Origin: Microbacterium sp. TPD7012
GTDB lineage: Bacteria; Actinomycetota; Actinomycetes; Actinomycetales; Microbacteriaceae
NCBI RefSeq assembly: GCF_003075395.1
Contig: NZ_QDFV01000005.1
Coordinates: forward strand, 186,001-250,000
DNA length: 64,000 nt
Reading direction: 5' to 3'
In this document: positions 8,378 through 30,182 of the stretch, piece after piece
Layout of the letters: each line of letters starts with the position of its first letter
Position numbering within the stretch: position 1 is the first letter of the stretch
Position numbers and translations under genes: made by a program
Notes under the pieces: model-generated
Seen by the model: the letters and a program-made list of their open reading frames with translations, nothing else
Told to the model about the DNA's origin: nothing
Databases searched by the model: none

Positions 8378-9880
8378 ATGTCTGCAACGACGGTCGACGA
8401 TCGTGCCCGTTATCGGGCGAATCCCACGGTGCTCCAGGCGCTGAAGAATCCGCGGATGCTGACGCGCGAGGTCCTGGCCGGACTCGTCGTCGGGCTCGCG
8501 CTGATCCCCGAGGCGATCGCGTTCTCGGTGATCGCCGGGGTCGACCCGAAGGTGGGGCTGTTCTCATCGTTCATCATGGCGGTGTCGATTGCTTTCCTCG
8601 GCGGACGTCCGGCGATGGTGACGGCGGCGACCGGAGCCGTGGCGCTGGTGATCGCTCCGGTCGCGCCGACGTACGGGCTGGACTACTTCATCGCGACGGT
8701 GATCCTCGCGGGGGTTTTCCAGGTGATCCTCGGGGTGCTCGGCGTCGCGAAACTGATGCGGTTCATCCCCCGCAGCGTCATGGTCGGGTTCGTGAACGCG
8801 CTGGCGATCTTCGTGTTCAGCTCGCAGTTCCCGCAGCTGATCGATGTGCCGTGGCTGGTGTATCCGCTGGTGGCGCTCGGGATCGTCGTGATGATCGTGA
8901 TGCCGAAGATCACCAAGATCGTTCCGGCTCCGCTCGTGTCGGTCGTGATCGTGACAGGAGTCGTGCTGGCGTTCGCGATCACCGTGCCGACCGTCGGCGA
9001 TCAGGGCGAGCTGCCGCGCAGTCTTCCTTCGCTGTTCATCCCGAACGTGCCGCTGACGTGGGAGACGTTCACGATCATCGCGCCGTTCGCGCTCGGAGTC
9101 GCGGTGGTCGGACTGCTGGAGTCGCTGCTCACCGCCAAGCTCGTCGACGAGATCACCGACACCCACTCGCGCAAGGGACGCGAGGCGTGGGCGCAGGGAG
9201 TGTCGAACGTGCTGTCGGGCATGTTCGGCGGCATGGGCGGCTGCGCCGTGATCGGTCAGACGATGATCAACGTGAAGGCGTCCGGGGCGCGCACCCGCAT
9301 TTCGACGTTCTGCGCCGGGGTCTTCCTGTTCCTGCTGGTCGTGGTGTTCGGCGACTTCGTTGGGACGATCCCGATGGCGGCTCTCGTAGCCGTGATGATC
9401 ATGGTCGCGATCGGGGCGTTCGACTGGCACAGCGTGCGTCCGTCGACGTTGAAGCGGATGCCGAAGAGCGAGACCTTCGTGATGGTGGCCACGGTTGTTC
9501 TGGTCTTGGTGACGCACAATCTGGCGGTCGGGGTTGTGGGTGGGGTGCTGGTGGCCTCGGTGCTGTTCGTGCGGAGGGTGGCGCACTTCGTGACGGTTCG
9601 TCGGGTGCTGAATGAGGCTGGGGAGGTGGTGACGTATGTCGTGGAGGGGGAGCTGTTCTTCGCTTCGAGCAATGATCTGACGACGTTGTTCTCTTACTCA
9701 GACGATCCGGAGCGGGTGGTGATTGATCTGTCGGGGTCGCATGTGTGGGATGCGTCGACCGTTGCGGCGTTGGATGCGATTGAGACGAAGTATGCGGCGT
9801 TGGGGAAGACGGTGGAGATCGTTGGGATGAATGACTCGAGCGGATGCTTCCACGCGAGCCTGAGCGGAGGGTTCGAATAG
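8378..9880 (+). CDS. SulP family inorganic anion transporter with STAS domain
   Basis: A 500-aa SLC26A/SulP transporter. The family signature begins at LTREVLAGLVVGLALIPEAI and continues through about 10-12 hydrophobic segments (for example VTAATGAVALVIAPVA and GMFGGMGGCAVIGQTMINVK, the conserved SulP substrate-site region). Residues about 400-500 are a cytoplasmic STAS domain (VVYVVEGELFFASSND-like start; VVIDLSGSHVWDASTVAALD). Expected substrates are sulfate, bicarbonate or another anion; the sequence cannot decide. The length is normal. The start at 8378 follows GGAG. A truncated copy of its first codons lies about 600 bp upstream. It is the last ordinary gene before the island. Confidence 0.92.
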   Translation: MSATTVDDRARYRANPTVLQALKNPRMLTREVLAGLVVGLALIPEAIAFSVIAGVDPKVGLFSSFIMAVSIAFLGGRPAMVTAATGAVALVIAPVAPTYGLDYFIATVILAGVFQVILGVLGVAKLMRFIPRSVMVGFVNALAIFVFSSQFPQLIDVPWLVYPLVALGIVVMIVMPKITKIVPAPLVSVVIVTGVVLAFAITVPTVGDQGELPRSLPSLFIPNVPLTWETFTIIAPFALGVAVVGLLESLLTAKLVDEITDTHSRKGREAWAQGVSNVLSGMFGGMGGCAVIGQTMINVKASGARTRISTFCAGVFLFLLVVVFGDFVGTIPMAALVAVMIMVAIGAFDWHSVRPSTLKRMPKSETFVMVATVVLVLVTHNLAVGVVGGVLVASVLFVRRVAHFVTVRRVLNEAGEVVTYVVEGELFFASSNDLTTLFSYSDDPERVVIDLSGSHVWDASTVAALDAIETKYAALGKTVEIVGMNDSSGCFHASLSGGFE

Positions 9881-9989
9881 ATCCGCACCCCCTGTTTCCG
9901 CGGACCGCGTCTCGCTCCAACGGGCATCCTCTGGACCGACGCCGACTGCGCCTGATGCAGTACGCCCTCCGGATCTGAGATCCTGAGGC

Positions 9990-10685
9990 ATGCTCTCTCC
10001 ATGTCCCCCCGGATGGCTCTGTCTCGCGCTGCCAAACCTTGAGTGGGGATCCCTAGCGGAGTGGGCGACCGCCGCAATTGCGGCAGCCGCTCTGATCGCC
10101 GCCGGATTTTCGGCCTTCTATGCGCTGCGAGCCGCAAACCATGCTCAGAAGCAAGCCGAGATCGCTCAAGAATCGCTGACCGCAGACACGAAAGTTCGCG
10201 AGGAGCAACAAGCGCGTTTGGTGTACGCGGTTGAAAAGAGTTGGGAAGTATCTGAGCGAGGAGAGGAGCATGATTCCTACTACGAGAAGACCGCGAGCGA
10301 TCCCGCACTCCTAACACGGGGCCCGGAAGGCAGTCAGGTTTACACCCGCAGCGTCGTGGAGTTCGGATTCACCGTGCGCAACCTAAGCGACGAGCTTGTG
10401 GGCCCGCTCGCCGTGTGGGCGAGGGACCGAAACAGCCGTGCTTTCTCAGCACTCCTAGCGACCTCCACGGTGCTCGAGCCGCAAAGCTCGGCCGAGTTCC
10501 TTGTCCTCTTTCCGATCCCGGACGGCATTGACCTCAGGGATGCGGAGGAGCAGGGGGTTTTGCACCTGGAACCAGTGATCGTTTTTCAAGATTCTTCGGG
10601 TGCCGCGTGGCGCCGAACCGGCCACGACACGATACGGCGTGACGAACACGGCCCCCTGTCTCCGGCCCTGTCACAGTTCGAATAG
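9990..10685 (+). CDS. Hypothetical membrane-anchored protein related in plan to the gene at 5810
   Basis: A 231-aa protein with one N-terminal membrane helix (AEWATAAIAAAALIAAGFSA), then a charged helix (NHAQKQAEIAQESLTADTKV REEQQARL) and a beta-rich domain (VEFGFTVRNLSDELVGPLAV; VLEPQSSAEFLVLFP; PVIVFQDSSGAAWRR). No named family recognised. Order of elements and several short blocks match the 169-aa protein at 5810-6319, so the two may be distant paralogues. ATG 9990 has GAGG just upstream. Third positions are noticeably less G/C-rich than in the SulP gene, marking the start of the atypical region. The following 233 bp (10686-10918) contain no gene that I can see. Confidence 0.6.
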   Translation: MLSPCPPGWLCLALPNLEWGSLAEWATAAIAAAALIAAGFSAFYALRAANHAQKQAEIAQESLTADTKVREEQQARLVYAVEKSWEVSERGEEHDSYYEKTASDPALLTRGPEGSQVYTRSVVEFGFTVRNLSDELVGPLAVWARDRNSRAFSALLATSTVLEPQSSAEFLVLFPIPDGIDLRDAEEQGVLHLEPVIVFQDSSGAAWRRTGHDTIRRDEHGPLSPALSQFE

Positions 10686-10918
10686 CGCACGTCCGATGCA
10701 GCTGGCTCATCTTGCTATCGGTTCACCTCATTTCCGCAATAGCCCCATACCAGCGTTCCGTGGCAAGAGAGCCGCCGTCGAATCACATCCCACCCGCGAC
10801 ATGACTCTCCGATGAGCTGCGCCATCGTCTTCAAACCGGCGCGTGGCGCCGATGTCGGTCAAATGAGCCATTATCTTCAGTAGGCCCATCGGCGGGCCGA
10901 GGACGAAGGGCATCAGGC

Positions 10919-12205
10919 ATGGACGATGTGGATCTCTCAGAGATCGAGCTGATTGCAGATGGGGACGGGCTCGCGCTTATCGGACCGTCTACCGCCGTGG
11001 AACAGTTCTTGACTGCCAACCGCCTCGAATCTCGCGACCTCGAACTGCCGCGGCTCGGCAAAGCGTTCGGTGGAGGGTCCGCCGCTCTCAAGGCGGGTTC
11101 GGAAATCACGGCAAACTCCGGCCGTTGGATGAAGCTCACCGAGGAATCGTGGGCCGCTGCCCAGAAGCTTCCAAAGGTGACTAATACGTCAAGCGGAAAT
11201 CTGCACGCGACACTCCGAGCCCCGAGCGGCCAGTTCGCGAAGAATCTGCAGTTCCTCAAGACACCGGGGGCGATGCTAACGAATCCGGCAATGCTCGCGG
11301 GCGTCGCGGGGATCATGGCCCAGCTCGCTATGCAGCAGACCATGGACGAGATCACCGACTACCTCGCGATCATCGACGAGAAGGTCGATGACGTGCTCCG
11401 AGCGCAAAAGGATGCTGTGCTCGCCGACATGATTGGCGTTGACATGATGCTCGAAGAGGCACTGACGATCCGCAAGGAAGTCGGTGGCGTCTCGGAAGTG
11501 ACCTGGTCTAAGGTTCAGGGATCGTCGATGACGATCGCGCGCACGCAGGCATACTTCTTGCGGCAGCTCGATGCGCTGGCAGAAAAGCTGGAGAGCAAGT
11601 CAGTGAACGAGCTCGCTGACCTGTCGAAGAAGGTCGACCGTCAGGTGCAGGATTGGCTGGCGGTGCTCGCACACTGCTTCTACCTGCAGGAGTCGACCGG
11701 CGTCATCGAGATCGACCGCGTCCTCCAGACCTCGCCGGAGGAACTCGACCGACACCGAATCGCACTCCGCACAGCTCGCGCGAATCGCGCGGAACTGATC
11801 ACGCGAACGACGCGGCAGCTCCTCGAACGGATGGACGCAGCGGCGGCTCTTGCGAACTCGAAGGTGCTCCTCAACCCGATCGAGTCGCCGGCTATCGTCC
11901 GCTCCAGAAATGCCGTCAGTAATTCTGTAGGGACCTTCCATGAACGTCTCGGCATCGAAGCAGCCGCCGACGCACTTGAGTCCCGTCGCTGGTCGAACGC
12001 AGTCTCGGATACGCGCGACGACTGGCTCAAAGCCGGCGGTGACAGCGTTGACACGGCGCTCCGCATCGGCACGGAAGGCGTGGAGGCGGCCGCACGTATC
12101 GGCGCCGAAGGCGTGGACAAGGCAAAGGAAATCGCAGGATCGTTCGCCGACTTCGCTGGACGCGCTTTCCGACGCCGTGCGCCGAAGGGCGAGGCTGACG
12201 AGTGA
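10919..12205 (+). CDS. Uncharacterised alpha-helical, coiled-coil protein (possible membrane-active component of a defence cassette)
   Basis: A 428-aa protein of no family I recognise. An acidic N-terminus (MDDVDLSEIELIADGDGLAL) leads to a hydrophobic stretch near residues 118-138 (LTNPAMLAGVAGIMAQLAMQ). Long helices rich in heptads follow (TMDEITDYLAIIDEKVDDVL; LAEKLESKSVNELADLSKKV; ELITRTTRQLLERMDAAAAL). The tail has 11-residue repeats around TALRIGTEGVEAAARIGAEG VDKAKEIAG and a basic end. One hydrophobic hairpin flanked by coiled coils resembles alpha-pore-forming proteins in outline only. Its stop overlaps the start of the HNH gene (GTGA), so it is translationally coupled to that cassette, and it is probably the first gene. 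Confidence 0.55.
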   Translation: MDDVDLSEIELIADGDGLALIGPSTAVEQFLTANRLESRDLELPRLGKAFGGGSAALKAGSEITANSGRWMKLTEESWAAAQKLPKVTNTSSGNLHATLRAPSGQFAKNLQFLKTPGAMLTNPAMLAGVAGIMAQLAMQQTMDEITDYLAIIDEKVDDVLRAQKDAVLADMIGVDMMLEEALTIRKEVGGVSEVTWSKVQGSSMTIARTQAYFLRQLDALAEKLESKSVNELADLSKKVDRQVQDWLAVLAHCFYLQESTGVIEIDRVLQTSPEELDRHRIALRTARANRAELITRTTRQLLERMDAAAALANSKVLLNPIESPAIVRSRNAVSNSVGTFHERLGIEAAADALESRRWSNAVSDTRDDWLKAGGDSVDTALRIGTEGVEAAARIGAEGVDKAKEIAGSFADFAGRAFRRRAPKGEADE

Positions 12206-12828
12206 GCAGCAGCGCCGCGATCGACGACGGCGGTACTGTCGCGAGGACCTACTTCGAACTCTTCGCTATGCCGAAACCCGTCCGCATCATGGGCCGCAGT
12301 TCGAGTATCACCAACTCGTTCGTGAATGGAGTCATCCCCGTCGTCATACCGAGTGAGTCGGAGGTGCGGGAGGCGCTCCACACTCTCCGGATGCTTGAAC
12401 AGATCTCTTGCGCATACTGCGGAGACACGAGCACCGAATGGGATCACCTTCGGCCCCTCGTCGAGGGGCAGCGACCTACCGGGTACATCTCCGAGATTCG
12501 CAATCTCGTACCCGCTTGCGGCAAGTGCAATCAGAGCAAGGGCAACAAGCACTGGCTCACCTGGATGCGCAGCGCCGCGCGGTTGTCACCCACGAGTCGG
12601 GGCATCGTCGATATCGAGGAGCGGATCGCCCGACTCCAGGAGTACGAGAGCGGCGGCGTGCCGACGAAGATCGACTTCGAAACGGTCGCCGGCGCCGACC
12701 TCTGGGAGCGCCATTGGGAGCATCACAAGCGGCTGCTGGAGCTCATGCGCGAAGCCGACGCGGATGCACAGCAGATCCGGATCCGCGTCCGTGAAGCTTA
12801 CGACGCGCAGCGCACGGTGGCCGGCTGA
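12202..12828 (+). CDS. HNH endonuclease
   Basis: A 208-aa protein with a classical zinc-bound HNH core: C70-x2-C73, then the W-D-H motif with His82, then C106-x2-C109 followed by NQSKGNKHW. The order C-x2-C / DH / C-x2-C / N is that of McrA-like and phage HNH nucleases. The N-terminal 60 residues and the C-terminal helical 80 residues are not recognised. It should cut DNA, metal-dependent. The start is GTG 12202, overlapping the upstream stop by four bases; its own stop overlaps the DUF6361 ATG by one base (TGATG). Such tight coupling supports a single complex or pathway with neighbours. Confidence 0.85.
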   Translation: MSSSAAIDDGGTVARTYFELFAMPKPVRIMGRSSSITNSFVNGVIPVVIPSESEVREALHTLRMLEQISCAYCGDTSTEWDHLRPLVEGQRPTGYISEIRNLVPACGKCNQSKGNKHWLTWMRSAARLSPTSRGIVDIEERIARLQEYESGGVPTKIDFETVAGADLWERHWEHHKRLLELMREADADAQQIRIRVREAYDAQRTVAG

Positions 12829-14015
12829 TGGCATCGGTCGTGACCTGGCTCGACGTTTCTGCCGAGGAACAGCGGCGGATGCGGGAGCTAGCCGCACTGT
12901 TCACCGTCCGGGACAGCCGTGATGAGCTCGGACTGGGCCTGCTGCGCGACAGCATCTCTGACGCACTCTTCCCGGGCACTTCAACCCTGCACACCCGCGC
13001 CCGCTATCTCCTCTTCGTCCCCTGGTGCTTCCAGCACGCCGCCCGCGCAAAACCAGAGCAGCGCTGGCGACGATTGGACGAGACCGAGCGCTCTATCATC
13101 TCTCCTCTTCGATCGTCTGCCGATCCGACCGGCCTTCTCGGCGAGCGTGCAGGCGCAGCACTCAAGAATCTTCCATCGTCCGCATACTGGTCGATGCTGC
13201 AGCGCTACGGGATCCTCTCTCATCCGGCCACCCGCGCTGAGGCCCTCGCTGCCTCCGCTATGAGGCGTTCCGTCGACGACGACGGACAGACGACTGCCTC
13301 ATCGATCTGGTCTGTACCGTCTATACCGGACGGGTTCCCCGAGAGCATCCCCGAGGGGTTCGCCCTCGCGCATGACGAGGCCACCTGGCTACGCGACCGC
13401 ATACTCGAACATGCACAGGGCTCTCTCCTCACGCACCTCGTACAGCACCGCCCCGAAGACGATAGTTCGGCGCCATGGACGGATGCTGCCGCCATCGCCG
13501 CTCCGGAGCGTGCCGCCCGAGTGCTTCAGCAAGCCGAAGACTTCTCTGCTGTGATGCACGGCGCGCAGCTGCTCTACAACCTCATGCTCGCCAGCGACGC
13601 TCACCGTCTTGACGTCGCCGATGAATCCCGGATCATCGAATACCGCGAGCGGCTCGAGGCGTGGGATCGAGAGTTGACTCCCCGAGCTCACAAATGGCAA
13701 CTGAGCGATCTCCTTCATGTCCTGCGCGAGGAGCACGGCTCCGCTCCGACGGTCGCGCCGAGCACTCGCGACTTCATCACGCGATGGACAAGCCTCGTGC
13801 AGAGCACGAACGCCGGCGCGCTCGTCGATGATGAGGGTGCGAAGGCGCTCATAAGACAGAGGGAGCGTGTTGCGAAAGGCGCCAAGGCACGCTTGAACAA
13901 CCAGCGACGGCTCGCGAGCTGGGGTGGCGCATCGGGTAGTGCACGGCTCACGTTCCGCTGGAGCACAGTGCGCGGGATCCTCACTGACATCGATGACGGG
14001 CTCCAACGTGCTTGA
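12828..14015 (+). CDS. DUF6361 family protein
   Basis: A 395-aa protein. Its opening (VTWLDVSAEEQRRMRELAAL, then RDELGLGLLRDSISDALFPG and TRARYLLFVPWCFQ) matches what I know of DUF6361, a family of unknown function of about 400 residues. No catalytic motif stands out; the protein is mostly helical, with many Arg/Glu pairs. DUF6361 genes tend to sit beside phospholipase-D-like and helicase genes (recalled, to be checked), exactly as here. The start at 12828 overlaps the HNH stop by 1 bp; the 3' end overlaps the PLD gene by 23 bp. Family assignment is by memory of the N-terminal pattern. Confidence 0.7.
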   Translation: MASVVTWLDVSAEEQRRMRELAALFTVRDSRDELGLGLLRDSISDALFPGTSTLHTRARYLLFVPWCFQHAARAKPEQRWRRLDETERSIISPLRSSADPTGLLGERAGAALKNLPSSAYWSMLQRYGILSHPATRAEALAASAMRRSVDDDGQTTASSIWSVPSIPDGFPESIPEGFALAHDEATWLRDRILEHAQGSLLTHLVQHRPEDDSSAPWTDAAAIAAPERAARVLQQAEDFSAVMHGAQLLYNLMLASDAHRLDVADESRIIEYRERLEAWDRELTPRAHKWQLSDLLHVLREEHGSAPTVAPSTRDFITRWTSLVQSTNAGALVDDEGAKALIRQRERVAKGAKARLNNQRRLASWGGASGSARLTFRWSTVRGILTDIDDGLQRA

Positions 14016-15792
14016 GCCCGATTCGCGGTCCCTGCTGTCCGAGCTCCTACACCCACCGCCCGGGTTCACGCTCTCACATGCGGTCGGCACGACATTCACG
14101 CTGACGCTCGAAGCCGCCCTCGCCGTGCCGCTCTCTCTCGTCGGCTCAGGAACTACCGACGACGATGCGGTCGGGATGATCAGCGCGGTGCGACGTGCGG
14201 TCGAGCGCACCGACGTGTTCGCTCAAGCCGGATACATCGGTCTCGGCGCCGCGAGCGACCTGGTCGCAGTACTCGAACCGATGATTCATCCGGTCGTGAC
14301 CAAGCCGGGCCGGCTGTTCCACCCCAAGGTATGGTTCCTCGAGTTCGCTGCCGGTGACGAGCGCCGCTACCGCTTCGTCTGCAGCAGCCGCAATCTTACG
14401 AACGACCACACGTGGGATGCAGTCGTCGCGCTTGACGGCGTACCAGCCGAGGCGGCAGACGCTTTGACGCGTCGTACGAACGACGGCATGGCGCATCTTC
14501 TGCGCTGGCTGTCCGCGGAAACCCGCGTTGCGCCGCGGATGAGTGCTGCCCGCAGCGCACGCATAGCCGAGCTCGCCGAGTCGTGGCAGACGATCCGTTG
14601 GGAGCATCCGGAGCACGTGCGTCGCCTTGCGGTTCATGTGCTCGGCATCGGTGTCGATACTGCTCCTTCCGTTAGAGGCTCCCACACGCTGATCGTGTCG
14701 CCGTTCGTGACCGACGACGGCCTCAAACACGTGCGCGCTCTGCGTAGCGGCGAGACGATTCTCGTGAGTCGTCCCGAGCAGCTCGACCGGCTGAATCCGC
14801 CCTCGTTCGACAATCTCTCTATGCGGATCCTTGACGGCTTCGTCGATCAGGCGCTGACCGGAGCCGAAGCTGGCGAAGCCGTCACCACTGGACTGAGCGG
14901 CCTCCATGCCAAAGTGATCGTGCATGACCGCCCGGGTGGTGGTTCGACGATGCTCATCGGTTCTGCGAACGCGACCGGTCCGGCCTGGAGCTCGAACGTC
15001 GAAGTAATGGTGGAGCTCGACGGCCCAACCAAGAAGCTCGGCGTCGCCTGCGTCTCGGAGGCTATCGCACCGTTGCTCGAGGAGTACGTGACGGCAGGCG
15101 GAGCCACGGCGACCGATGACGAGACAGCCGAACGCAACCTCGATAGCGCTCTCAGGGGTCTCGCCTCCTCCCTTATCGCGCTGCGGATTCACGAGGGCGA
15201 TTCCTACACGTTCTCGCTCTGGGCACACGATCCCATCCCGACGGTCCCTGAAGAGCTCTCTATTTCTTGGCGTCTCTTAACCCAGGCTGACGCCGTGCTC
15301 GGCGCATTCCCTCCGGAAAACGCTCCGTTCATATCGCGATCGATGTCGCTCGCCGAGATCACACCATTCATCGTGGTGTTTCTCGAAGATCAATCGGGCC
15401 GGCGCGCGCAGACGATTCTCGTCGCCGAGGTCATCGATGATGTGCCCGAAAGGCAAGATGCGATCGTCGCGGCCCATCTGACGGAGCCCGACGCTTTTGC
15501 CCGGTTCGTCCGGCTCATGCTCCAGCAGCCGGGGACCGGCTTGGGATCGGTCGGAGGGGCCTTTGGTTCGTTCCGCTCGGCCTTCGGCGGAGGCGTCACC
15601 GAAGACGGTTCGGGATTGCTGGAACTGCTGGTGCGCGCCGCGGCGACGAACCGGGAGGCCCTGGCGGACATCGAGCGCGTGCTGTCGCATCTGCGTCTCG
15701 ACGACCGCGCCGCTACCTTGCCCTCGGGATTCAGCGAGGTCTGGGCGTCCGTGATCGGTTCTCTCGAGATGGAGGCCTTTGATGGCCGTTGA
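13993..15792 (+). CDS. Phospholipase D-like nuclease with two HKD motifs
   Basis: A 599-aa PLD-superfamily protein. HKD motif 1 is H110-P-K112 with E117, followed by SSRN (131-134). Motif 2 is H305-A-K307 with D312, followed by GSAN (323-326). This is the complete bilobed active site, so phosphodiesterase/nuclease activity on DNA or RNA is likely. The C-terminal 250 residues form an unassigned beta-rich and helical region. The start at 13993 (ATG) gives a 23-bp overlap with DUF6361; GTG 14008 would give 8 bp and is an alternative. The stop overlaps the helicase start by 11 bp. DISARM pairs a PLD protein (DrmC) with a helicase, but other DISARM parts are missing here. Confidence 0.85.
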   Translation: MTGSNVLEPDSRSLLSELLHPPPGFTLSHAVGTTFTLTLEAALAVPLSLVGSGTTDDDAVGMISAVRRAVERTDVFAQAGYIGLGAASDLVAVLEPMIHPVVTKPGRLFHPKVWFLEFAAGDERRYRFVCSSRNLTNDHTWDAVVALDGVPAEAADALTRRTNDGMAHLLRWLSAETRVAPRMSAARSARIAELAESWQTIRWEHPEHVRRLAVHVLGIGVDTAPSVRGSHTLIVSPFVTDDGLKHVRALRSGETILVSRPEQLDRLNPPSFDNLSMRILDGFVDQALTGAEAGEAVTTGLSGLHAKVIVHDRPGGGSTMLIGSANATGPAWSSNVEVMVELDGPTKKLGVACVSEAIAPLLEEYVTAGGATATDDETAERNLDSALRGLASSLIALRIHEGDSYTFSLWAHDPIPTVPEELSISWRLLTQADAVLGAFPPENAPFISRSMSLAEITPFIVVFLEDQSGRRAQTILVAEVIDDVPERQDAIVAAHLTEPDAFARFVRLMLQQPGTGLGSVGGAFGSFRSAFGGGVTEDGSGLLELLVRAAATNREALADIERVLSHLRLDDRAATLPSGFSEVWASVIGSLEMEAFDGR

Positions 15793-18700
15793 CGTCGAAG
15801 CGGTCATGCGGGGGTTGAAAGGCTTTCAACGCGACGCCGTCAGCCATGTGATCGATCGCTTCTACGGTGATCGCGACGGCAGCGGAAGGTTCCTCGTCGC
15901 CGACGAGACGGGCCTCGGTAAGAGCGTGATCGCGCGCGGAGTGATCGCGAAGACGATCGAACATCTGCAGAATGCCGACGGTGTCGATCGGATCGACATC
16001 GTCTACATCTGCAGCAATGCCGACCTCGCGAATCAGAATCTACGGCGGCTGAACGTCACCGGAGACAAGCACATCGCAGTCGCAACCAGACTGACTCTGC
16101 TGGCCCGCGAGAGCCACCGGCTCACAGAGCACGAAGGGTCGAGCGGCAAGAAGGTCAACCTCGTCTCGTTCACCCCCGGCACCTCGTTTAAAGACAGCGG
16201 CCTCCGCTGGGGCAGCGCGGAGGAACGCGCACTCCTCTGCATCCTCCTCGAAGGAATCTTGCGGCCCGAGCGCGAGATAAAGCGCGCGGGCCGGTTGATC
16301 CTGCAGGGCGCGGTGCAGAAGCTGTCGAGCTTCGAGCGGCGCATCAGTCGGATGCTCGACGACCTCGGCCCCACCGGTCCCGACGAACGAATCACGGACG
16401 TTTTTGCCAACGCCATCGAAGCGGACGGCACACTCCAGAGGGTCGTCGCCCTGCAGGAGCGCGTGCACGTTCACGGACGCAAGCCGGATTCGGGCGATTT
16501 GTGGCGTGAGGCGGCCGACCTCGTGGCTGCGTTGCGGCGCCATCTTGCGCAGGCCAGTGTCGATGCACTCGAGCCCGACCTGGTCATCCTCGACGAGTTC
16601 CAACGGTTTCGATCGCTCCTCGATCCGTCAAGCGGCAGCGAGGCCGCGGAGCTCGCCGACAGCCTTTTCACCTACGGCGACGCGAAAGTGCTGCTCCTCT
16701 CGGCGACACCATATAAGCCGTTCACCACGGCTGACGACGCCGACGACGATCACCAGCGCGACTTCCTCGAGACGATCGGGTTCCTCGCCGGGCGTGACGT
16801 GTCACGGGTCGCGGAGGTTAAGACCGCGCTGGAGGCTCACCGCCTAGCGCTAGTCACCGGCGGCGATGCGGCAGCGTCTGCGGCGTCCGTTCGCAACGCA
16901 CTGCTTCCCTACATGTCGCGCTCCGAGCGCCCTCCGCTGGCTCGCAACCAGGACATGGTGATCGATCGCCCGCTCGACGGAGGCGTACCGAGCGCGGCCG
17001 AGATCGCCGACTGGGGATCACTGCATCGCCTCGACCGACATCTGGGCGCGCACATCGACATCGAGCAGTGGAAGTCGATCCCCTACTTCGCGACGTTCAT
17101 GGACACGTACAAGTCCGGCTCACGCGTGCGCGACCTGCTAGATGGCGACGGCAGCAAGACCATCGCCCCACTACTTTCCGCTGCGCGCGGGATCCGGTTC
17201 GACGATGTCCGAGCCCGGGCGGAGATCGATCTCGGAAACGGGCTGCTTCGCGCCCTCGCAGAGGATACGGTCGGCCGAGGGTGGTGGAAGCTTCTGTGGA
17301 TGCCGCCCTCGATGCCGTACCTGCGACCTGGACGGATCTACTCCAGCGTCGATGGCGACGTGACGAAGCACGTCGTCTTCTCCGCGTGGAACGCAGTACC
17401 CACGGCGATCGCCGCCCTGCTGAGCCACGAGGCTTCGCGGCTGGCACACCGCGGCCGGAGCCGAGCATCGGATTCGAGCGCTGCGCGCTTGGCATGGTCG
17501 GTCAACGAGGACGGACGACCCACGCAGATGAGTGCTCTGGCCCTGTTCTGGCCGCACCCGGGTCTGGCGTTCGCAGCGGATCCGCTGTCGTCGGCGCGTC
17601 GGGCGGGTGGGCCCACGGATGCCCGGACGGTGGCGGAAATGGTGGACTCGAGCGGAGACGATATCGAACCCTCGTCAGCCTTCTTCACCTACCCCGGGGC
17701 GATCCCGCCCGGGGTCAAGCCGTCCCAGGTGGCGGCCATGGTCGGCGGAGAGCCGGATGTCGAGGAGTCGGAAGCGAGTGGCCGGTTCGCCGACTATCTC
17801 GAGGCAGCAACCGGGGCGATGCGTGGTGCAACATCCGGACACCCCGATCTGGGATGGCTGGCCGCCCATGCGCCGGGTTCGATCGCATTCCGCGCAATGC
17901 ATGCGGCCTCGTCCCCGGAAGCGTCTGGGGCGGGTGTCTGGCGAGCCGCTTGGCATCTGTCACTCGCGTTGCGTTCGCTATTCGCGAGACCCGAGACCTC
18001 GGCGCTGTTGGACACTCTGGACGAGACGGATGCTCCCTACTGGAGAGTCGTGCTCGACTACTGCGCCGACGGCAACCTGCAGGCCGTGTTGGACGAGTAT
18101 CTTTATCAGCTCCGCAGCGAGGCCGGTGGCGGGCTGCTCGACGACGAGGGTCTGATGCTCGCGGCGATACAGATCGGTGGGGCGGTACGGATGAAGCCCG
18201 CCATGTTGCAGGGGCACGAGGCGACGGCAGAACGTTTGCCGATACGGTTTCCCACGCGCTTCGCCGTTCGGTATGGCGGAGCAGGCACGGATGCTGACGA
18301 GAAGGTCGCCGCGCGTCAGAGCGGCGTGCGGGCAGCGTTCAATAGTCCATTCGCACCATACGTGCTCGCGTCGACGAGCGTCGGACAGGAAGGCATCGAC
18401 TTCCATTGGTGGAGTCATGCTGTTGTGCATTGGAACCTGCCTTCAAACCCCGTCGACTTCGAACAGCGCGAAGGCCGCGTGCATCGTTACATGGGTCACG
18501 CTGTCCGGAAGAACGTCGCGGCGCGGCACTGGGACGACGTGCTGTCGTCGGAGAATGCGCCGTGGGACGCGGCCTTCGACGCGGCGCTCGCTTCATCGGC
18601 GACGTCAGACTTGGGGCAGTTCGCACCGTGGTGGGTCTACGACGGTGATGCCCGGATCCATCGACGTATCGCGTCGTTCACGTTGAGTCGTGACCATGAC

Positions 18701-18853
18701 CGATACAAACGATTGCTGGATGCGTTGACGTTGTACCGCCTGACCTTGGGACAACCCCGGCAAGAGGACATGCTGAGACTGATGCGGCAGAACGGAGTCG
18801 AGAGGGATCTCGAAGCGGGGGCGATAGACCTGCGAGCCCCCGGAAAGGGATAG
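15782..18853 (+). CDS. Large superfamily 2 helicase of the defence cassette
   Basis: A 1023-aa SF2 helicase. Motif I is DETGLGKS (K47), motif II is DEFQ (271-274), motif III is SATP (307-310), motif V is GQEGID (868-873) and motif VI is QREGRVHR (895-902). The long insertion (about residues 330-850) between the RecA lobes is unusual and matches no domain I recognise. ATP-driven translocation on DNA is expected. ATG 15782 is preferred over TTG 15779. The gene is the last of an operon of five overlapping genes and ends 12 bp before the stop of the convergent HNH gene. It most resembles helicases of phage-defence loci rather than housekeeping enzymes. Confidence 0.87.
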   Translation: MAVDVEAVMRGLKGFQRDAVSHVIDRFYGDRDGSGRFLVADETGLGKSVIARGVIAKTIEHLQNADGVDRIDIVYICSNADLANQNLRRLNVTGDKHIAVATRLTLLARESHRLTEHEGSSGKKVNLVSFTPGTSFKDSGLRWGSAEERALLCILLEGILRPEREIKRAGRLILQGAVQKLSSFERRISRMLDDLGPTGPDERITDVFANAIEADGTLQRVVALQERVHVHGRKPDSGDLWREAADLVAALRRHLAQASVDALEPDLVILDEFQRFRSLLDPSSGSEAAELADSLFTYGDAKVLLLSATPYKPFTTADDADDDHQRDFLETIGFLAGRDVSRVAEVKTALEAHRLALVTGGDAAASAASVRNALLPYMSRSERPPLARNQDMVIDRPLDGGVPSAAEIADWGSLHRLDRHLGAHIDIEQWKSIPYFATFMDTYKSGSRVRDLLDGDGSKTIAPLLSAARGIRFDDVRARAEIDLGNGLLRALAEDTVGRGWWKLLWMPPSMPYLRPGRIYSSVDGDVTKHVVFSAWNAVPTAIAALLSHEASRLAHRGRSRASDSSAARLAWSVNEDGRPTQMSALALFWPHPGLAFAADPLSSARRAGGPTDARTVAEMVDSSGDDIEPSSAFFTYPGAIPPGVKPSQVAAMVGGEPDVEESEASGRFADYLEAATGAMRGATSGHPDLGWLAAHAPGSIAFRAMHAASSPEASGAGVWRAAWHLSLALRSLFARPETSALLDTLDETDAPYWRVVLDYCADGNLQAVLDEYLYQLRSEAGGGLLDDEGLMLAAIQIGGAVRMKPAMLQGHEATAERLPIRFPTRFAVRYGGAGTDADEKVAARQSGVRAAFNSPFAPYVLASTSVGQEGIDFHWWSHAVVHWNLPSNPVDFEQREGRVHRYMGHAVRKNVAARHWDDVLSSENAPWDAAFDAALASSATSDLGQFAPWWVYDGDARIHRRIASFTLSRDHDRYKRLLDALTLYRLTLGQPRQEDMLRLMRQNGVERDLEAGAIDLRAPGKG

Positions 18854-18865
18854 ACCGCCGAGAAA

Positions 18866-20047
18866 CTAGGAAAGGCTCCGCTGCCATTGCGACCATGCGT
18901 GCTCTAGGGCGAGATCGTGTGGACGGTGCGGGAGGTGCGCAAGCGATTCTCTCGTGATCCCCAACTCCGCAAGCGTTCTGCCTTCGCGGGTCGCCACTCT
19001 GAGAGACTGCGGCTCAATTGCCCAAAGTGACGAGTCAAGCATCCGGTGGTGATTGCTACATAGAGCTATGCCGTTGCGGGGGTCGTCAGCGCCACCAGAG
19101 GATTTTGAGCGAAGGTGCGCCGCCTCGATAACGGTTGAGATGGCAAGATCGCACACCGCGCAGAGGTCGCCGTAGCGCTGCTTGACCCTGAACGCGAACC
19201 GCGCCTGGTTGGGTCGCGAACGTCTGAGAGCCCAGCGATCGGTATCGTCAAGAGAAACGAGACTGAAAGGCAGTTCGTCTTCGGCGGGGGCAGGCGGCAA
19301 CGTCGCGTCCTCAAGGAAGGTGAGAAGAGCGGTCGACGTAGATTCGTCTATTTCTTCGACGAACGCCCGGTAGACCGCCCGCATCTGGGCGCTAGCCTTG
19401 GCGAGAGTGATGACGAACACCGGCATCGCCAGCTCGTACGCTCGCCGGGTTGCATTGATCTCGGCGCGATCACGGCCCCCGGTACTTGTGGCCGGGAAGT
19501 GGTAGACAACACCGGATTCAGAGATCTGGTTGGCGTACTTGACCCCAAGGTCGAGGAACGTTAACGCTATGCCGTGCGGAGCATGCTCGTGTCGCGTGTT
19601 CTCGACATCGACGTAGATTCCTCGAGCTCCCGCGTAAAGCCCTGCCTTGCGGACCTCTTGTGGTGCAACGAACGTAACATCCACGCGCGTGACGAGTTCG
19701 CTCCACAGCTTCTCCCGCCGCACTACCTCGAGATCGTGCCCGGCGGCGCCGGATCGGTTCAAACCCTCGGATACCGACCATCCCTCCTTCGTCAGCGCCC
19801 AGATGCCATCGGCTCGCGCCTCGAGCAAGCCTTGTTCGACCATGCGCTGACGCTCGAAGGACGTCCGGTTCCGCCATTTGGTCTCGAACTGACGCGTGGT
19901 TTGAGGCAAGAGATCGTCATCTGACCAGAGATGGCCGTAAGCCTCCTCGAAGGCATCCAACACGTCTCGCCTCCGAGCGCTCCCTCCGGCCGCGACAAGT
20001 TGTAACAGGAGCCGAGTACGAAGGGCGGCATGCGAGGTGAGGGGCAT
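18866..20047 (-). CDS. HNH endonuclease with N-terminal winged helix, restriction-like
   Basis: A 393-aa protein with three parts. Residues 1-100 are a winged-helix domain like the Mrr N-terminal module (LLLQLVAAGGSARRRDVLDA; GLLEARADGIWALTKEGWSV). The middle, with YAGARGIYVDVENTRHEHAP and VVYHFPATSTGGRDRAEINA, looks like a sequence- or modification-recognition domain found before HNH domains. The C-terminal HNH nuclease has LCAVCDLAISTVIEAAHLRS and IALCSNHHRMLD, all zinc and catalytic positions present. This plan fits type IV or solitary type II-like restriction. It stands alone on the minus strand between two defence operons, divergent from the SNF2 helicase with a 99-bp gap. Confidence 0.8.
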   Translation of the reverse strand: MPLTSHAALRTRLLLQLVAAGGSARRRDVLDAFEEAYGHLWSDDDLLPQTTRQFETKWRNRTSFERQRMVEQGLLEARADGIWALTKEGWSVSEGLNRSGAAGHDLEVVRREKLWSELVTRVDVTFVAPQEVRKAGLYAGARGIYVDVENTRHEHAPHGIALTFLDLGVKYANQISESGVVYHFPATSTGGRDRAEINATRRAYELAMPVFVITLAKASAQMRAVYRAFVEEIDESTSTALLTFLEDATLPPAPAEDELPFSLVSLDDTDRWALRRSRPNQARFAFRVKQRYGDLCAVCDLAISTVIEAAHLRSKSSGGADDPRNGIALCSNHHRMLDSSLWAIEPQSLRVATREGRTLAELGITRESLAHLPHRPHDLALEHAWSQWQRSLS

Positions 20048-20146
20048 GGACTCAGCATGCCGGTATATCGCTCGGCCTGTGAGGTCCCGTCGACAGATCG
20101 CAAGCCAGGGAGCGCCACACGGTGCAGGTATGGGAAGCTAGCAACA

Positions 20147-23100
20147 ATGCGCATCATCGACAACGTCAGCGACCTCCTCGGGGATGATCTCAAAGCCGAG
20201 ATCAAGCCCGGGTCGAAGGTCCGAATCGCTGCGTCAACTTTCTCGATCTTCGCATTCGAGGCGCTCCGCAAGGAGCTCGAGCAAGTCTCGGATCTGGAGT
20301 TTATCTTTACCTCGCCATCGTTCGTCACAGAGAAAGTCACAGACAAGCTTCGCAAGGAGCGACGCGAGTTCTTCATTCCGGGTGGTCCACGCAAACCGGC
20401 CGAATCGAGCCTGGCCGGCTCTGACTTCGAGATCAGACTGCGCAACAAACTCACTCAACGTGCGATCGCTCGTGAGTGCGCCGACTGGATACGTCGGAAG
20501 GTGACGTTCCGTTCGAATGCCACAGGTAATCCGATGCAGCAGTTCGCAGTGCTCGACGACACGAGCGCCTACACGCAGCTGCAGGGCTTCACCACCGCTG
20601 ATCTCGGCTATGAACGGGGCAATGCGGTGTCGAGCTTCGTGAATCGCCTCGATGAAGCGCCCATGACGGCGCAGTACCTGCAGCTGTTCGAACAGATCTG
20701 GAACAACCCGGATCAGGTCGAGGACGTCACCGAAGCCGTGAGCGAGCAGATCGCGAGCGTGTATGCCGAGAACAGCCCCGAGCGGATCTACTTCCTGATT
20801 TTGTACAACCTCTTCTCCGAGTTCCTCGACGACCTCAGCGAAGATGCACTACCAAACGACCGCACGGGGTACCAGGACACGAAGATCTGGCAGAGCCTTT
20901 ACAACTTCCAGCGAGATGCGGCAACGGGGATCATCAACAAGCTCGAGACGTACAACGGCTGTATCCTCGCTGACAGTGTGGGCCTGGGTAAGACGTTTAC
21001 AGCGCTAGCGGTCATCAAGTACTACGAACTGCGGAACAAGAGCGTGCTCGTCTTGGCGCCGAAGAAGCTCGCTGACAACTGGACGAACTACAACTCTCCC
21101 TACACGACGAACCTGTTCCACGAGGATCGGTTCGGCTACACCGTTCTCGCGCACACGGATCTTTCCCGGACGCGCGGCGAGTCGCTCGGCAAGGATCTTT
21201 CTCGCCTCAACTGGGGCACGTTTGATCTAGTTGTGATCGATGAGTCGCACAACTTCCGCAATGCTGGCTATTCGGAGGAGCGGGAGAGTCGCTATCAGCG
21301 GCTCATGCGTCAAGTGATCCGCGAGGGCGTGAAGACCAAAGTGCTGATGCTCTCGGCGACTCCAGTGAACAACCGCTTCAACGACCTGAAGAACCAGTTG
21401 CAACTGGCCTACGAAGGAGAGAGCGAAGAGCTCGAAAAGCACCTGACCCTATCCACTTCGGTCGAGAATGTTTTCCGAGACGCGCAGCGAGCTTTTAACG
21501 TCTGGTCGAAGCTCGAGCCGTCGGAGCGAACCGCGGAGCGAATCCTGCAAATGCTCGACTTCGACTTCTTCGAGTTGCTCGATGCCGTCACAATTGCCCG
21601 GTCGCGCAAGCACATTCAGGCCTATTACGACATGACCGACATCGGCGCCTTCCCGCGTCGTCTGCCGCCGGTAGCGATCCGGGAGCCGCTGACGGATCTC
21701 TCGGATGTCCCCGCGTTCGATGAGATTTTTGAGCGCCTCGAGCAACTGACCCTCGCCGTTTACCGACCGCTTTCTTACGTGTTCCCTAGCCGGCGCGCGA
21801 TCTATGAAGCGGCTCTCGGAGAGAAGAACGTGGACAATTTCCGCGGTGGCGCCGGACAGCAAGGGCGCGAGCAGGGCGTCAAGAAGCTGATGACGGTGAA
21901 CCTGCTGAAGCGCCTCGAAAGCTCCGTCGAGGCGTTCCGGCTTACGCTCGGAAGGATCGAGAGGATCACCGATACGACACTCGGTCAGGTGAAGCACGGC
22001 AACTCCGTTGTGAGTGCCGATGATGACGATCTCGAGCTCGATGTTGACGACCCAGACGATGCTGAGCTGAGTTCGTTCCTCATCGGAGGCGGCCTGCGGA
22101 TAGCGCTGAGCGATATCGACACGGAGTCCTGGAACCACGACCTAACCCATGATCTCGAGGTCTTGCGGCAGCTGCTCGACGAAGTGCGCCGCGTGATCCC
22201 TGATCGCGATCTCAAGCTGCGCCGTCTGCATAAGGTAATCGAGGACAAGATCGATAACCCGCTTAACTCTGGCAACCGGAAGGTGCTGATCTTCTCGGCA
22301 TTCGCAGACACTGCGGACTATCTGTACCGTGAGCTCGGCCCCGTACTCGCGCGGCGCGGGCTGGAGACCGCGGTCATCACGGGCTCCAGCCACGGCGTAC
22401 GTACAACGCTCGGAACCGGGTTCGACGCGCAAGAAGCGATGTCACTGTTCTCCCCGCGCTCGAAGCATCGCGAACTGACGATGCCCGGAGAGACTTGCGA
22501 GATCGACATTCTCATAGGCACCGACGTGATCAGCGAAGGCCAGAACCTCCAGGACTGCGACTTCCTCATCAACTACGACATCCACTGGAACCCCGTGCGC
22601 ATCATCCAGCGCTTCGGCCGCGTGGACCGCATCGGCTCGACGAACGACGTGATTCAGCTCGTAAATTTCTGGCCGGATATCTCGCTGGACGCGTACATCA
22701 ACCTCAAGGAACGCGTGGAAGGGCGAATGATCATCGCAGACATCGCTGGCACCGGCGACGACAATGTCCTCGATCCGGGAGGCGCCGAAGCCGCGTACCG
22801 GCGAGAGCAGCTGCGGCGCCTGCAAGACGATGTCGTCGATCTCGAGGACGTACGAACTGGCGTATCAATCACCGATCTTGGACTCAACGACTTCCGTATG
22901 GATCTACTCGGGTTTATGAAGCAGCACGGCGATCTGCACGGTCACCAGATGGGGTTGCATTCTGTCATCGCAGCTGATGAGGCCGAGGGGCTGCCGCCGG
23001 GAGTGATCTTCGCGCTGCGAAACGTGAATGCACCGAATGACGTGAACCGCGGCAACCGTCTGCATCCGCACTATCTTGTCTATCTCGGCGAAGACGGGCG

Positions 23101-23413
23101 CGTGATCGCTGACCACACCGAGGCAAAGCGTCTGCTCGACCTGCTCCGAGCTGGCTGCCGAGGCATTGACCAACCAATGGTCGATGTCGTCGCAGCATTC
23201 AACGCTGAGACGCGCGATGGCGCTGCGATGAGTCGTTACTCGACACTGCTCACAGACGCGATCCGATCCATGATCGACGTCACAGATGAACGTGACATCG
23301 ACAGCCTCTTCACCGCCGGTCCGACGACGGCACTGATGCAGGGCATCAGCGGGCTGGACGACTTCGAGTTGATCGCCTTCGTCGCCATCGTCGATGAGTC
23401 CGCCAATGACTGA
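20147..23413 (+). CDS. SNF2-type helicase with N-terminal PLD-like domain
   Basis: A 1088-aa protein. The first 170 residues (VRIAASTFSIFAFEALRKEL...FIFTSPSF) look like a phospholipase-D-like fold, without a clear HKD. The SNF2 helicase core has GLGKT (279-283, K282), DESH (365-368), SATP (403-406) and QRFGRVDRIGS (821-831). It is expected to translocate on duplex DNA. The start at 20147 was chosen because upstream in-frame codons read through the divergent promoter region. The 3' end overlaps DUF4391 by 8 bp, and methylase and Res follow, so it is the first gene of a type III-like restriction-modification operon. Such helicases are not part of classical EcoPI systems. Confidence 0.88.
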   Translation: MRIIDNVSDLLGDDLKAEIKPGSKVRIAASTFSIFAFEALRKELEQVSDLEFIFTSPSFVTEKVTDKLRKERREFFIPGGPRKPAESSLAGSDFEIRLRNKLTQRAIARECADWIRRKVTFRSNATGNPMQQFAVLDDTSAYTQLQGFTTADLGYERGNAVSSFVNRLDEAPMTAQYLQLFEQIWNNPDQVEDVTEAVSEQIASVYAENSPERIYFLILYNLFSEFLDDLSEDALPNDRTGYQDTKIWQSLYNFQRDAATGIINKLETYNGCILADSVGLGKTFTALAVIKYYELRNKSVLVLAPKKLADNWTNYNSPYTTNLFHEDRFGYTVLAHTDLSRTRGESLGKDLSRLNWGTFDLVVIDESHNFRNAGYSEERESRYQRLMRQVIREGVKTKVLMLSATPVNNRFNDLKNQLQLAYEGESEELEKHLTLSTSVENVFRDAQRAFNVWSKLEPSERTAERILQMLDFDFFELLDAVTIARSRKHIQAYYDMTDIGAFPRRLPPVAIREPLTDLSDVPAFDEIFERLEQLTLAVYRPLSYVFPSRRAIYEAALGEKNVDNFRGGAGQQGREQGVKKLMTVNLLKRLESSVEAFRLTLGRIERITDTTLGQVKHGNSVVSADDDDLELDVDDPDDAELSSFLIGGGLRIALSDIDTESWNHDLTHDLEVLRQLLDEVRRVIPDRDLKLRRLHKVIEDKIDNPLNSGNRKVLIFSAFADTADYLYRELGPVLARRGLETAVITGSSHGVRTTLGTGFDAQEAMSLFSPRSKHRELTMPGETCEIDILIGTDVISEGQNLQDCDFLINYDIHWNPVRIIQRFGRVDRIGSTNDVIQLVNFWPDISLDAYINLKERVEGRMIIADIAGTGDDNVLDPGGAEAAYRREQLRRLQDDVVDLEDVRTGVSITDLGLNDFRMDLLGFMKQHGDLHGHQMGLHSVIAADEAEGLPPGVIFALRNVNAPNDVNRGNRLHPHYLVYLGEDGRVIADHTEAKRLLDLLRAGCRGIDQPMVDVVAAFNAETRDGAAMSRYSTLLTDAIRSMIDVTDERDIDSLFTAGPTTALMQGISGLDDFELIAFVAIVDESAND

Positions 23414-24086
23414 TCACGTCCTCTTCCGATGGCCCGAACGCGCGGCCTTCGGCCGCACCGTACCAAAGACGCGATTCTACGAGCGAGGCAACATCCATGC
23501 CGGGATGCGTGAGAAGTTTGTGGACGACATCCAGCGCATCACCTGGGCCTACAAGCTCGCCGACGATACAATCCATCTCCGCGGCACCGCCACGGTACCG
23601 GAGATCCAGGTCTTCACCGTTGAGACCAAAGGCGCGGATGTCTCCGACGACGTGCTCACCGCCATTGACAAAACGGTGCACTTCCCAATCATCTTCGAGA
23701 TCGTCGGCAACATGCGCGTGCGTACTGTCGCCGCGCAGAAGACACTTCACAGTAGTACCCCGACCATCGGCGCCTACTTCACCACCGAATGGCATCCAGC
23801 CGAGACTTCGCGCCGTCCGCTCCCGACGGCACTCGATCTACCAGGCCTGTACGAGGCGATTCTTGCAGCACTATTGCCCATGGCGACGCGCACCGGTGAG
23901 ACAGTGTCGGCAGCCACCGGCAGGCTGGACCGCGCCCGAAGACTTCAACGCGAGATCGCCATACTGGAGCGCAAGCTGCGCACCGAGCCACAACTCAACC
24001 GCAAGATCGAACTCCGCAGTCAGATCAGGGAACGCACGGCAGTGCTTACCGAGCTGACCGGCCCCGAATCGAGCAGCAAGGAATGA
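23406..24086 (+). CDS. DUF4391 domain protein
   Basis: A 226-aa protein. The opening LFRWPERAAFGRTVPKTRFY, the block FVDDIQRITWAYKLADDTIH and IQVFTVETKG are characteristic of DUF4391, a family that accompanies type III-like methylases and helicases. The C-terminal 60 residues form a charged coiled coil (LDRARRLQREIAILERKLRT), suggesting a scaffold or subunit role. No catalytic residues are known. ATG 23406 is used (8-bp overlap with the helicase); ATG 23394 is the alternative. Its TGA overlaps the methylase ATG (ATGA), showing translational coupling. Confidence 0.85.
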   Translation: MTDHVLFRWPERAAFGRTVPKTRFYERGNIHAGMREKFVDDIQRITWAYKLADDTIHLRGTATVPEIQVFTVETKGADVSDDVLTAIDKTVHFPIIFEIVGNMRVRTVAAQKTLHSSTPTIGAYFTTEWHPAETSRRPLPTALDLPGLYEAILAALLPMATRTGETVSAATGRLDRARRLQREIAILERKLRTEPQLNRKIELRSQIRERTAVLTELTGPESSSKE

Positions 24087-25912: not shown

Positions 25913-25916
25913 CCTG

Positions 25917-29006: not shown

Positions 29007-29182
29007 CTGCGCACCGGGTTGCAAGCCACCTGCCGCGGACCGCGAGTTCAGACGGCACGCCGGCGAACTCAGCGTCGTATCACGGCGACTCACTCTGGAT
29101 CGTCACCTCAGATCACGGCGGCACAACGAAGACCCGCTCGCTTCCATCCCGCCCGCACACGCGGCGCAACGATAATGGACGG

Positions 29183-30010: not shown

Positions 30011-30182
30011 CGAGAGACTTGCCATCCCGATTCCATGCAGCGTATGTAGGAAGCACAGATTGACCCCGTCGCATGGGCGCATTCGGTTTCAACTCAGTTT
30101 CTCCATCACTTATCACCTTGCGACCACGTTGGCGCAGCATGGCGATGCCATCCGAACGCACGACCGAGGCGTCGTCTCGAGG

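What the first reader, a model, noticed from the sequence alone, without database searches (positions are those of the whole stretch)
10919..18853. Overlapping cassette of coiled-coil protein, HNH, DUF6361, two-HKD PLD and SF2 helicase
Seen: five same-strand genes overlap by 4, 1, 23 and 11 bp, and every catalytic motif is intact (HNH C70/C73/H82/C106/C109; HKD H110-K112 and H305-K307-D312; helicase K47, DEFQ 271-274). Known: PLD nucleases pair with helicases in DISARM, but its DrmB (DUF1998) and methylase are absent. Inference: a self-contained anti-phage system with two nuclease types, an ATP motor and a membrane-active-looking protein; I know no named system with exactly this set.
Basis: partly seen in the sequence, partly recalled or inferred. 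Interest (0 to 1): 0.8.

Follow-up and report, generated by a model that had tools for sequence, protein, structure and literature searches.

The report
Known Azaca defence system, two add-ons
Three of the five genes are a phage-defence system already named Azaca, sitting in a swap-in defence island; the two genes in front are separate add-ons, one of them an unnamed protein that also turns up beside many other defence systems.

Summary
The five overlapping same-strand ORFs exist as described, with the stated motifs. Genes 3-5 (12828-18853) match PADLOC's ZacA, ZacB and ZacC over nearly their full lengths (411, 484 and 1049 bits): the named Azaca system. In 29 other Azaca loci examined, zacA and zacB are side by side in all 29 and zacC is found in 28 (one contig ends there); the HNH gene is in 0 and a gene-1 (g1) relative in 3, directly adjacent in 2. 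None of 80 fetched g1 loci contains ZacA or ZacB. The block lies in a roughly 20 kb island (about 9835-30184) whose site holds different cargo in two siblings. Likely mechanism (inferred): the ZacC helicase moves on foreign or abnormal DNA and the two-HKD ZacB cuts it; ZacA's role is unknown. The new part is g1, an actinobacterial long-helix protein without a Pfam, NCBIfam or PADLOC match. It often lies just downstream of DNA-targeting defence operons (Dpd/DISARM-like, PglX, type I RM, Wadjet, Azaca), but in most loci near none that I could recognise, and the excess shrinks when lineages are counted once. Interest: modest for the cassette, moderate for g1.

The parts
12828..14015 (+). zacA (DUF6361)
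   Evidence: PADLOC ZacA 410.8 bits, residues 1-393 of 395; Pfam DUF6361 213.9 bits
13993..15792 (+). zacB, two-HKD PLD-like nuclease
   Evidence: PADLOC ZacB 484.2 bits, residues 6-591 of 599; both HxK motifs, GSAN and E337 invariant in 19 sequences
15782..18853 (+). zacC, SF2/SNF2-type helicase
   Evidence: PADLOC ZacC 1049.5 bits, residues 3-1020 of 1024; K47, DEFQ 271-274, SAT 307-309 and C-terminal helicase motifs invariant in 18 sequences
12202..12828 (+). HNH nuclease gene, not an Azaca component; rare accessory
   Evidence: Pfam HNH 31.1 bits; relatives in 2 other genomes of 297 in the order, neither with a ZacB match in the search
10919..12205 (+). g1: unnamed long-helix protein, found beside many actinobacterial defence operons and also alone
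   Evidence: no Pfam/PADLOC/NCBIfam match up to E 0.01; 126 relatives in genome contigs, 80 fetched; neighbours
9835..30184 (.). variable island between conserved SulP transporter and MerR-type regulator genes
   Evidence: nucleotide homology to sibling G970 (L191) stops at 9834 and resumes at 30185; G970 and G967 carry other cargo there
18866..20047 (-). Mrr_N + HNH restriction-type protein, neighbour in the island
   Evidence: Pfam Mrr_N 37.9 bits, HNH_2 40.4 bits
20147..29006 (+). type III RM cluster: PLD-SNF2 helicase, DUF4391, Mod, Res; neighbour in the island
   Evidence: PADLOC C3a139 392.1 bits, MTase_III 690.6, REase_III 1015.6; Pfam DUF4391 150.7

Best explanation
The block is an Azaca system (zacABC, 12828-18853) in a swap-in defence island. 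Two separate island genes, a rare HNH nuclease and the unnamed helical protein g1, sit in front of it, probably in the same transcript (inferred from the overlaps). Shown by sequence: a recurrent three-gene unit of a helicase with intact ATPase motifs, a two-HKD PLD-type phosphodiesterase with intact catalytic residues, and DUF6361. Inferred: ZacC binds and moves along invading or abnormal DNA and brings or licenses ZacB, whose two HKD motifs form one active site that cuts the DNA; ZacA would be an adaptor, recognition or regulatory subunit. The unit has no methylase of its own, so discrimination must come from DNA structure, ends or phage factors. HNH and g1 act on their own or as optional back-ups.
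For: PADLOC near full-length matches to ZacA/B/C. In 29 other loci zacA and zacB are neighbours in all and zacC is found in 28: 12 plasmid loci, among them Cronobacter, Rhizobium-group bacteria, Phaeobacter, Haliscomenobacter and the archaeon Halomarina, and 17 chromosomal loci. Catalytic residues are invariant. The ZacB profile hits 7clg_A 'Putative helicase' at E 4.5e-6 over the second HKD region (that 7clg is the PLD-helicase restriction enzyme SauUSI is recalled). PMC12278908 (passage) lists Azaca (ZacC) among defence systems with a helicase; PMC10482375 (passage) counts Azaca among Actinobacteria-enriched systems of unknown mechanism. Island context.
Against: No experiment; DNA tracking and cutting are inferred from motifs. 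ZacA has no credible match among solved structures, so its role is a guess. The 4 and 1 bp overlaps, and g1 beside Azaca also in G436 (11 bp upstream) and G670 (160 bp downstream), leave room for a functional link of g1 with Azaca. The window's Azaca is a divergent branch: best ZacB identity 52%, then 43, 37 and 31-36% in the other 13 genomes. In two of the 12 plasmid loci a Zac gene looks interrupted in the annotation (zacB in L097, zacA in L100).
Confidence: 0.78

Rival explanations
1. A genuine five-gene variant of Azaca in which g1 and HNH are obligate subunits (an expanded system with two nuclease types).
For: Overlapping starts and stops; g1 directly beside zacABC also in G436 and G670, and the three Azaca-adjacent g1 proteins do not group on the tree.
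Against: HNH in 0 of 29 other Azaca loci and g1 adjacent in 2 of 29 (both are chromosomal, 2 of 17); 0 of 80 g1 loci contain ZacA or ZacB (some loci are short).
Confidence: 0.12
2. g1 is a promiscuous accessory or back-up effector of DNA-targeting defence operons, in this window next to Azaca; possibly a membrane-acting helical bundle comparable with JukB.
For: PADLOC families among 54 immediate co-directional upstream neighbours of g1: DrmMI-type 9, PglX 4, MkoA 2, PDC-S66 2, ThsB1 2, REase_I 2, C3a187 2, ZacC, JetD and PD-T4-6 one each (first 25 of 69 families listed). 42 downstream neighbours: UzuA 2, and PDC-S11, PDC-S14, DpdE/DrmD, ZacA, MkoA one each (first 25 of 36 listed). 51 distal genes: no family in more than one member. 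The structural aligner lists JukB for both models (Z 10.7, rmsd 3.5, 158 aligned; Z 10.4, rmsd 3.6, 158 aligned); PMC13282480 (passage) says JukB forms tetrameric pores.
Against: Thirteen of the upstream hits are two arrangements (Streptomyces Dpd/DrmMI, Micromonospora PglX; the PglX rows are one lineage on the tree); counted once each, the excess over downstream and distal genes is much smaller. The distal set also holds several different defence genes (JetD, ZacA, Cas7e, methylases). 63 of 102 g1 loci show no defence-type homologue within six genes under my reference set. MukF (Z 12.1) and designed helical proteins score as high as or higher than JukB, and Z under about 13 is not meaningful for helical bundles. 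Foldseek finds nothing at E 0.001 or better. No transmembrane-grade segment.
Confidence: 0.3
3. DISARM-like or Dpd-like system.
For: PLD plus SF2 helicase; weak DrmC, DrmD and DpdE hits.
Against: Best DrmC hit 24.2 bits against ZacB's 484.2; NCBIfam DrmC 23.2 bits against a cut-off of 133; no DrmB or DISARM methylase in the listings for the five genes.
Confidence: 0.01

Closest known systems
Azaca (ZacA-ZacB-ZacC) of PADLOC; Millman et al. 2022 as cited in PMC10952713
   Same: all three proteins, their order, close spacing, domain content and catalytic motifs
   Different: divergent branch; two extra genes in front in this genome
SauUSI-type PLD-helicase restriction enzyme (PDB 7clg; this identity is recalled)
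   Same: active-site region like ZacB's second HKD; nuclease joined with a helicase
   Different: one fused protein against three separate ones; its target (modified cytosine, recalled) is not known for Azaca
Hachiman (HamA-HamB)
   Same: helicase sensor with a separate nuclease effector (abstract of PMC12278908 in a search listing); used here only as a working analogy
   Different: no sequence comparison with HamA/HamB was made; the PADLOC listings for the Zac proteins show no Hachiman model
Juk system, JukB (for g1)
   Same: g1's bundle superposes on JukB at Z about 10.5
   Different: not above unrelated bundles; no JukA search was made; g1 relatives seen here are actinobacterial

Membership tests
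Azaca | ZacA (DUF6361) present, full length | tested here: met
   410.8 bits, residues 1-393 of 395; DUF6361 213.9 bits
Azaca | ZacB, PLD-like with two HxK motifs | tested here: met
   484.2 bits; residues invariant in 19 sequences
Azaca | ZacC helicase with intact ATPase motifs | tested here: met
   1049.5 bits; K47, DEFQ, SAT invariant in 18 sequences
Azaca | contiguous order A-B-C on one strand | tested here: met
   window; same order in 28 of 29 other loci, the 29th cut by a contig end
Azaca | protects cells against phages | not testable with these tools
   needs a plaque assay
DISARM | DrmB (DUF1998) and methylase in the operon | tested here: not met
   none in the Pfam, PADLOC and NCBIfam listings for the five genes (for the HNH gene 25 of 26 PADLOC families were shown)
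DISARM | DrmC-level PLD match | tested here: not met
   23.2 bits against the NCBIfam cut-off of 133
Septu (PtuA-PtuB) for the HNH gene | PtuB-level match with a PtuA ATPase next to it | tested here: not met
   best PtuB hit 24.2 bits over the HNH core; no PtuA match in the listings for the neighbouring genes
Juk (JukB) for g1 | JukB fold | tested here: inconclusive
   Z 10.7 and 10.4, tied with or below unrelated bundles
Juk (JukB) for g1 | JukA sensor gene beside it | not tested
   no JukA model was searched by name

The most novel reading that the evidence does not exclude
g1 is the founding member of an undescribed actinobacterial defence protein family: a shared, exchangeable add-on recruited again and again to the end of unrelated DNA-targeting defence operons (Dpd/DISARM-like, PglX, type I RM, Wadjet, Azaca, UvrD-type). 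There it could serve as a common second-line effector, perhaps acting on membranes through its long helical bundle and amphipathic C-terminal repeats.
Probability: 0.25. Interest if true: 0.65.

Novelty: new member of a known kind. Interest (0 to 1): 0.36.

Why it matters
It shows that the eye-catching cassette is an existing system (Azaca) with variable company, which prevents a false 'new system' claim, and it gives alignments of ZacA, ZacB and ZacC (22, 19 and 18 sequences) with the residues to mutate in a system whose mechanism is listed as unknown (PMC10482375, passage). It also points to g1, a widespread actinobacterial protein without a Pfam, NCBIfam or PADLOC match, whose position beside several defence operons is a testable hint of a general accessory role.

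Tried and rejected
Five-gene unit as one system: rejected by co-occurrence. DISARM/Dpd: rejected. Septu/PtuB for the HNH gene: rejected. Sequence relatives of g1 in the PDB: only two chance-level hits. g1, ZacB and ZacA in viral contigs: no confirmed relative; each scan used two short conserved patterns, so this is a weak negative. ZacB in phage records: 1 of 50,697, covering 59% of the query. Fold of g1: full model poor (pLDDT 59); residues 96-347 better (pLDDT 81); no Foldseek match at E 0.001 or better in PDB or BFVD. MukF, 14-3-3 and JukB resemblance judged compatible with a common arrangement. Promoter and terminator scan: one promoter-like site (1.0 expected) and no terminator-like site (4.8 expected); uninformative. 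Searches for 'Zac' names gave nothing usable (including two papers opened without a relevant passage) until the system name Azaca, recalled, was searched.

Weak points of the g1 statistics: the reference set was picked largely from genes seen upstream of g1, so its upstream excess is partly circular. The PADLOC scans do not have that bias, but they list only the first 25 families (of 69, 83 and 36) and count per family, not per protein; nine upstream hits are one Streptomyces arrangement and four one Micromonospora lineage. The partner labels on the tree were set by hand; two of the six labelled type I RM (L066, L183) have the RM genes on the opposite strand. Dropped before counts: L178 and L180 (same genomes as L053 and L078); L005, L032 and L151 (short upstream genes) of the 57; L015, L025 and L046 had no distal gene; g1 rows under 350 or over 560 aa were left out of the tree. 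Genes were called with a small script of my own, which missed zacB in L153 and L167 and the HNH relative in L156; co-occurrence was therefore recounted on the DNA.

Full report
What is there. The position of D312 in the second HKD of ZacB is always acidic in the alignment (D 14, E 5 of 19).

What it is. PADLOC gives near full-length matches of genes 3, 4 and 5 to ZacA, ZacB and ZacC (410.8, 484.2 and 1049.5 bits). That these are the three proteins of Azaca I recognised from memory; papers confirm it in part: PMC12278908 (one methods passage) names 'Azaca (ZacC)' among defence helicases, PMC10952713 (one table passage) puts a PLD-like domain in Azaca and cites Millman et al. 2022, and PMC10482375 (one passage) counts Azaca among systems of unknown mechanism enriched in Actinobacteria. 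I did not see the original Azaca paper.

Is the five-gene set a unit? ZacB was found in 17 of 297 genomes of the order, own included, and in 33 of 72,556 plasmid records. I examined 17 other chromosomal loci (16 plus G038, found; fetched) and 12 of the 33 plasmid records. By tblastn on the DNA of these 29 loci, ZacA and ZacB are present side by side in 29 and ZacC in 28 (L162 is cut by the contig end); the window's HNH gene has no relative in any; g1 has one in 3. It is directly upstream of zacA by 11 bp in G436 (L151), directly downstream of zacC by 160 bp in G670 (L152), and about 9 kb away on the other strand in G617 (L153). In G634 a distant g1 relative (32%) lies about 15 kb away, outside the stretch of that count. 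Conversely none of the 80 fetched g1 loci contains ZacA or ZacB (flanks up to 10 kb, some loci shorter).

The HNH gene. Relatives were found in 2 other genomes of 297 in the order, the same two again among 345 of the class, and at about 32% identity in two Hymenobacter plasmids. In G268 it lies near a ResIII-type helicase and Eco57I-type methylase pieces, in G398 near a UvrD helicase and an integrase. It looks like a rare island nuclease rather than an Azaca subunit.

Gene g1. It has no Pfam, PADLOC or NCBIfam match up to E 0.01, and among 63 relatives only scattered weak Pfam hits, the best E 0.0018. It is common: 126 relatives confirmed in genome contigs, 80 kept; 45 of 297 genomes in the order, own included; 4 plasmid records. 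In 102 loci a defence-type homologue lies within six genes in 39 and within three in 35: at position -1 in 23 of 102, -2 in 18 of 100, -3 in 19 of 98, against 3 of 96, 3 of 95 and 5 of 93 downstream; the reference set was chosen partly from these upstream genes, so this is biased. PADLOC scans free of that choice: 54 co-directional upstream neighbours gave DrmMI-type 9, PglX 4, MkoA 2, PDC-S66 2, ThsB1 2, REase_I 2, C3a187 2, ZacC 1, JetD 1, PD-T4-6 1 among the 25 of 69 families listed (a protein may count in more than one); 42 downstream neighbours gave UzuA 2, PDC-S11 1, PDC-S14 1, DpdE/DrmD 1, ZacA 1, MkoA 1 among 25 of 36 listed; 51 distal genes gave no family in more than one member, though several different defence genes are among them, one being the ZacA of G617. 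If the Streptomyces Dpd/DrmMI arrangement and the Micromonospora PglX lineage are each counted once, the upstream excess becomes small. On a tree of 101 g1 proteins the three Azaca-adjacent ones do not group (3 changes, at least 2 forced by supported branches), the four PglX ones are one lineage, and 73 rows carry no partner label. So g1 is a separate gene that has come to lie beside Azaca more than once, beside several other systems, and often beside none that I recognised.

Structure of g1. The full-length model is poor (pLDDT 59). Residues 96-347 give pLDDT 81: a short beta hairpin, one very long helix and a helical bundle. No Foldseek hit reaches E 0.001. The VIA-align list is headed by MukF entries (Z 12.1, rmsd 3.2, 140 aligned), then a designed protein and JukB (Z 10.4, rmsd 3.6, 158 aligned); by the tool's own yardstick this is no evidence of kinship. 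No segment reaches transmembrane-grade hydropathy; C-terminal segments have high helical hydrophobic moments.

Where it lies. DNA homology to the sibling G970 (96% and 95% protein identity in the two flanking genes searched) stops at window 9834, after a SulP transporter gene, and resumes at 30185, at a MerR-type gene. Between them G970 has what look like a cytosine methylase, a short Vsr-like ORF and large unknown proteins, and G967 has genes that look like type I RM (labels by eye). So the block is cargo of a variable site. The island also holds an Mrr_N-HNH protein and a type III RM cluster with a PLD-SNF2 helicase and DUF4391.

How it likely works. Shown: conserved ATPase and PLD catalytic residues in relatives that share 26-61% identity with the window's proteins. 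Inferred: ZacC moves on DNA, ZacB cuts it, ZacA couples or recognises. Nothing here shows what is recognised.

Verdict. Observation confirmed, reading partly supported; Azaca is known; g1 is the part worth following.

Noticed in passing
window 9835-30184; L191, L192: Variable site between SulP and MerR-type genes: the window genome and two siblings (G970, G967) carry three different cargoes there.
   Followed up: yes
window 20147-29006: Type III RM cluster with a PLD-SNF2 helicase (PADLOC C3a139) and DUF4391 in front of Mod and Res.
   Followed up: partly
window 18866-20047 (-): Mrr_N + HNH protein, weakly like phosphorothioate-dependent restriction enzymes (45.7 bits, below the cut-off of 180).
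   Followed up: no
L092, L093, L096, L097, L098 upstream of zacA; L162 and L169 nearby: A PD-(D/E)XK nuclease plus UvrD-helicase pair is annotated directly upstream of zacABC in five of the 12 plasmid loci fetched; what looks by eye like a similar pair lies near two chromosomal ones. Possible second partner of Azaca.
   Followed up: no
L160:7584-8687: An EcsC-family protein gene (97.3 bits) lies immediately upstream of zacA in G038, where the window has HNH.
   Followed up: no
L075, L080 and seven other Streptomyces loci: Recurrent gene run: DruE-like helicase, DpdE-type SNF2 helicase, DrmMI-type methylase, then g1.
   Followed up: partly
window 9990-10685 and 29183-30010: Two genes at the island edges without a Pfam match up to E 0.01.
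   Followed up: no
window 12002-12172 (g1 residues about 362-418): g1's C-terminus has a repeated amphipathic pattern (GVEAAARIG-type), reminiscent by eye of lipid-binding 11-residue repeats; the model has low confidence there.
   Followed up: partly
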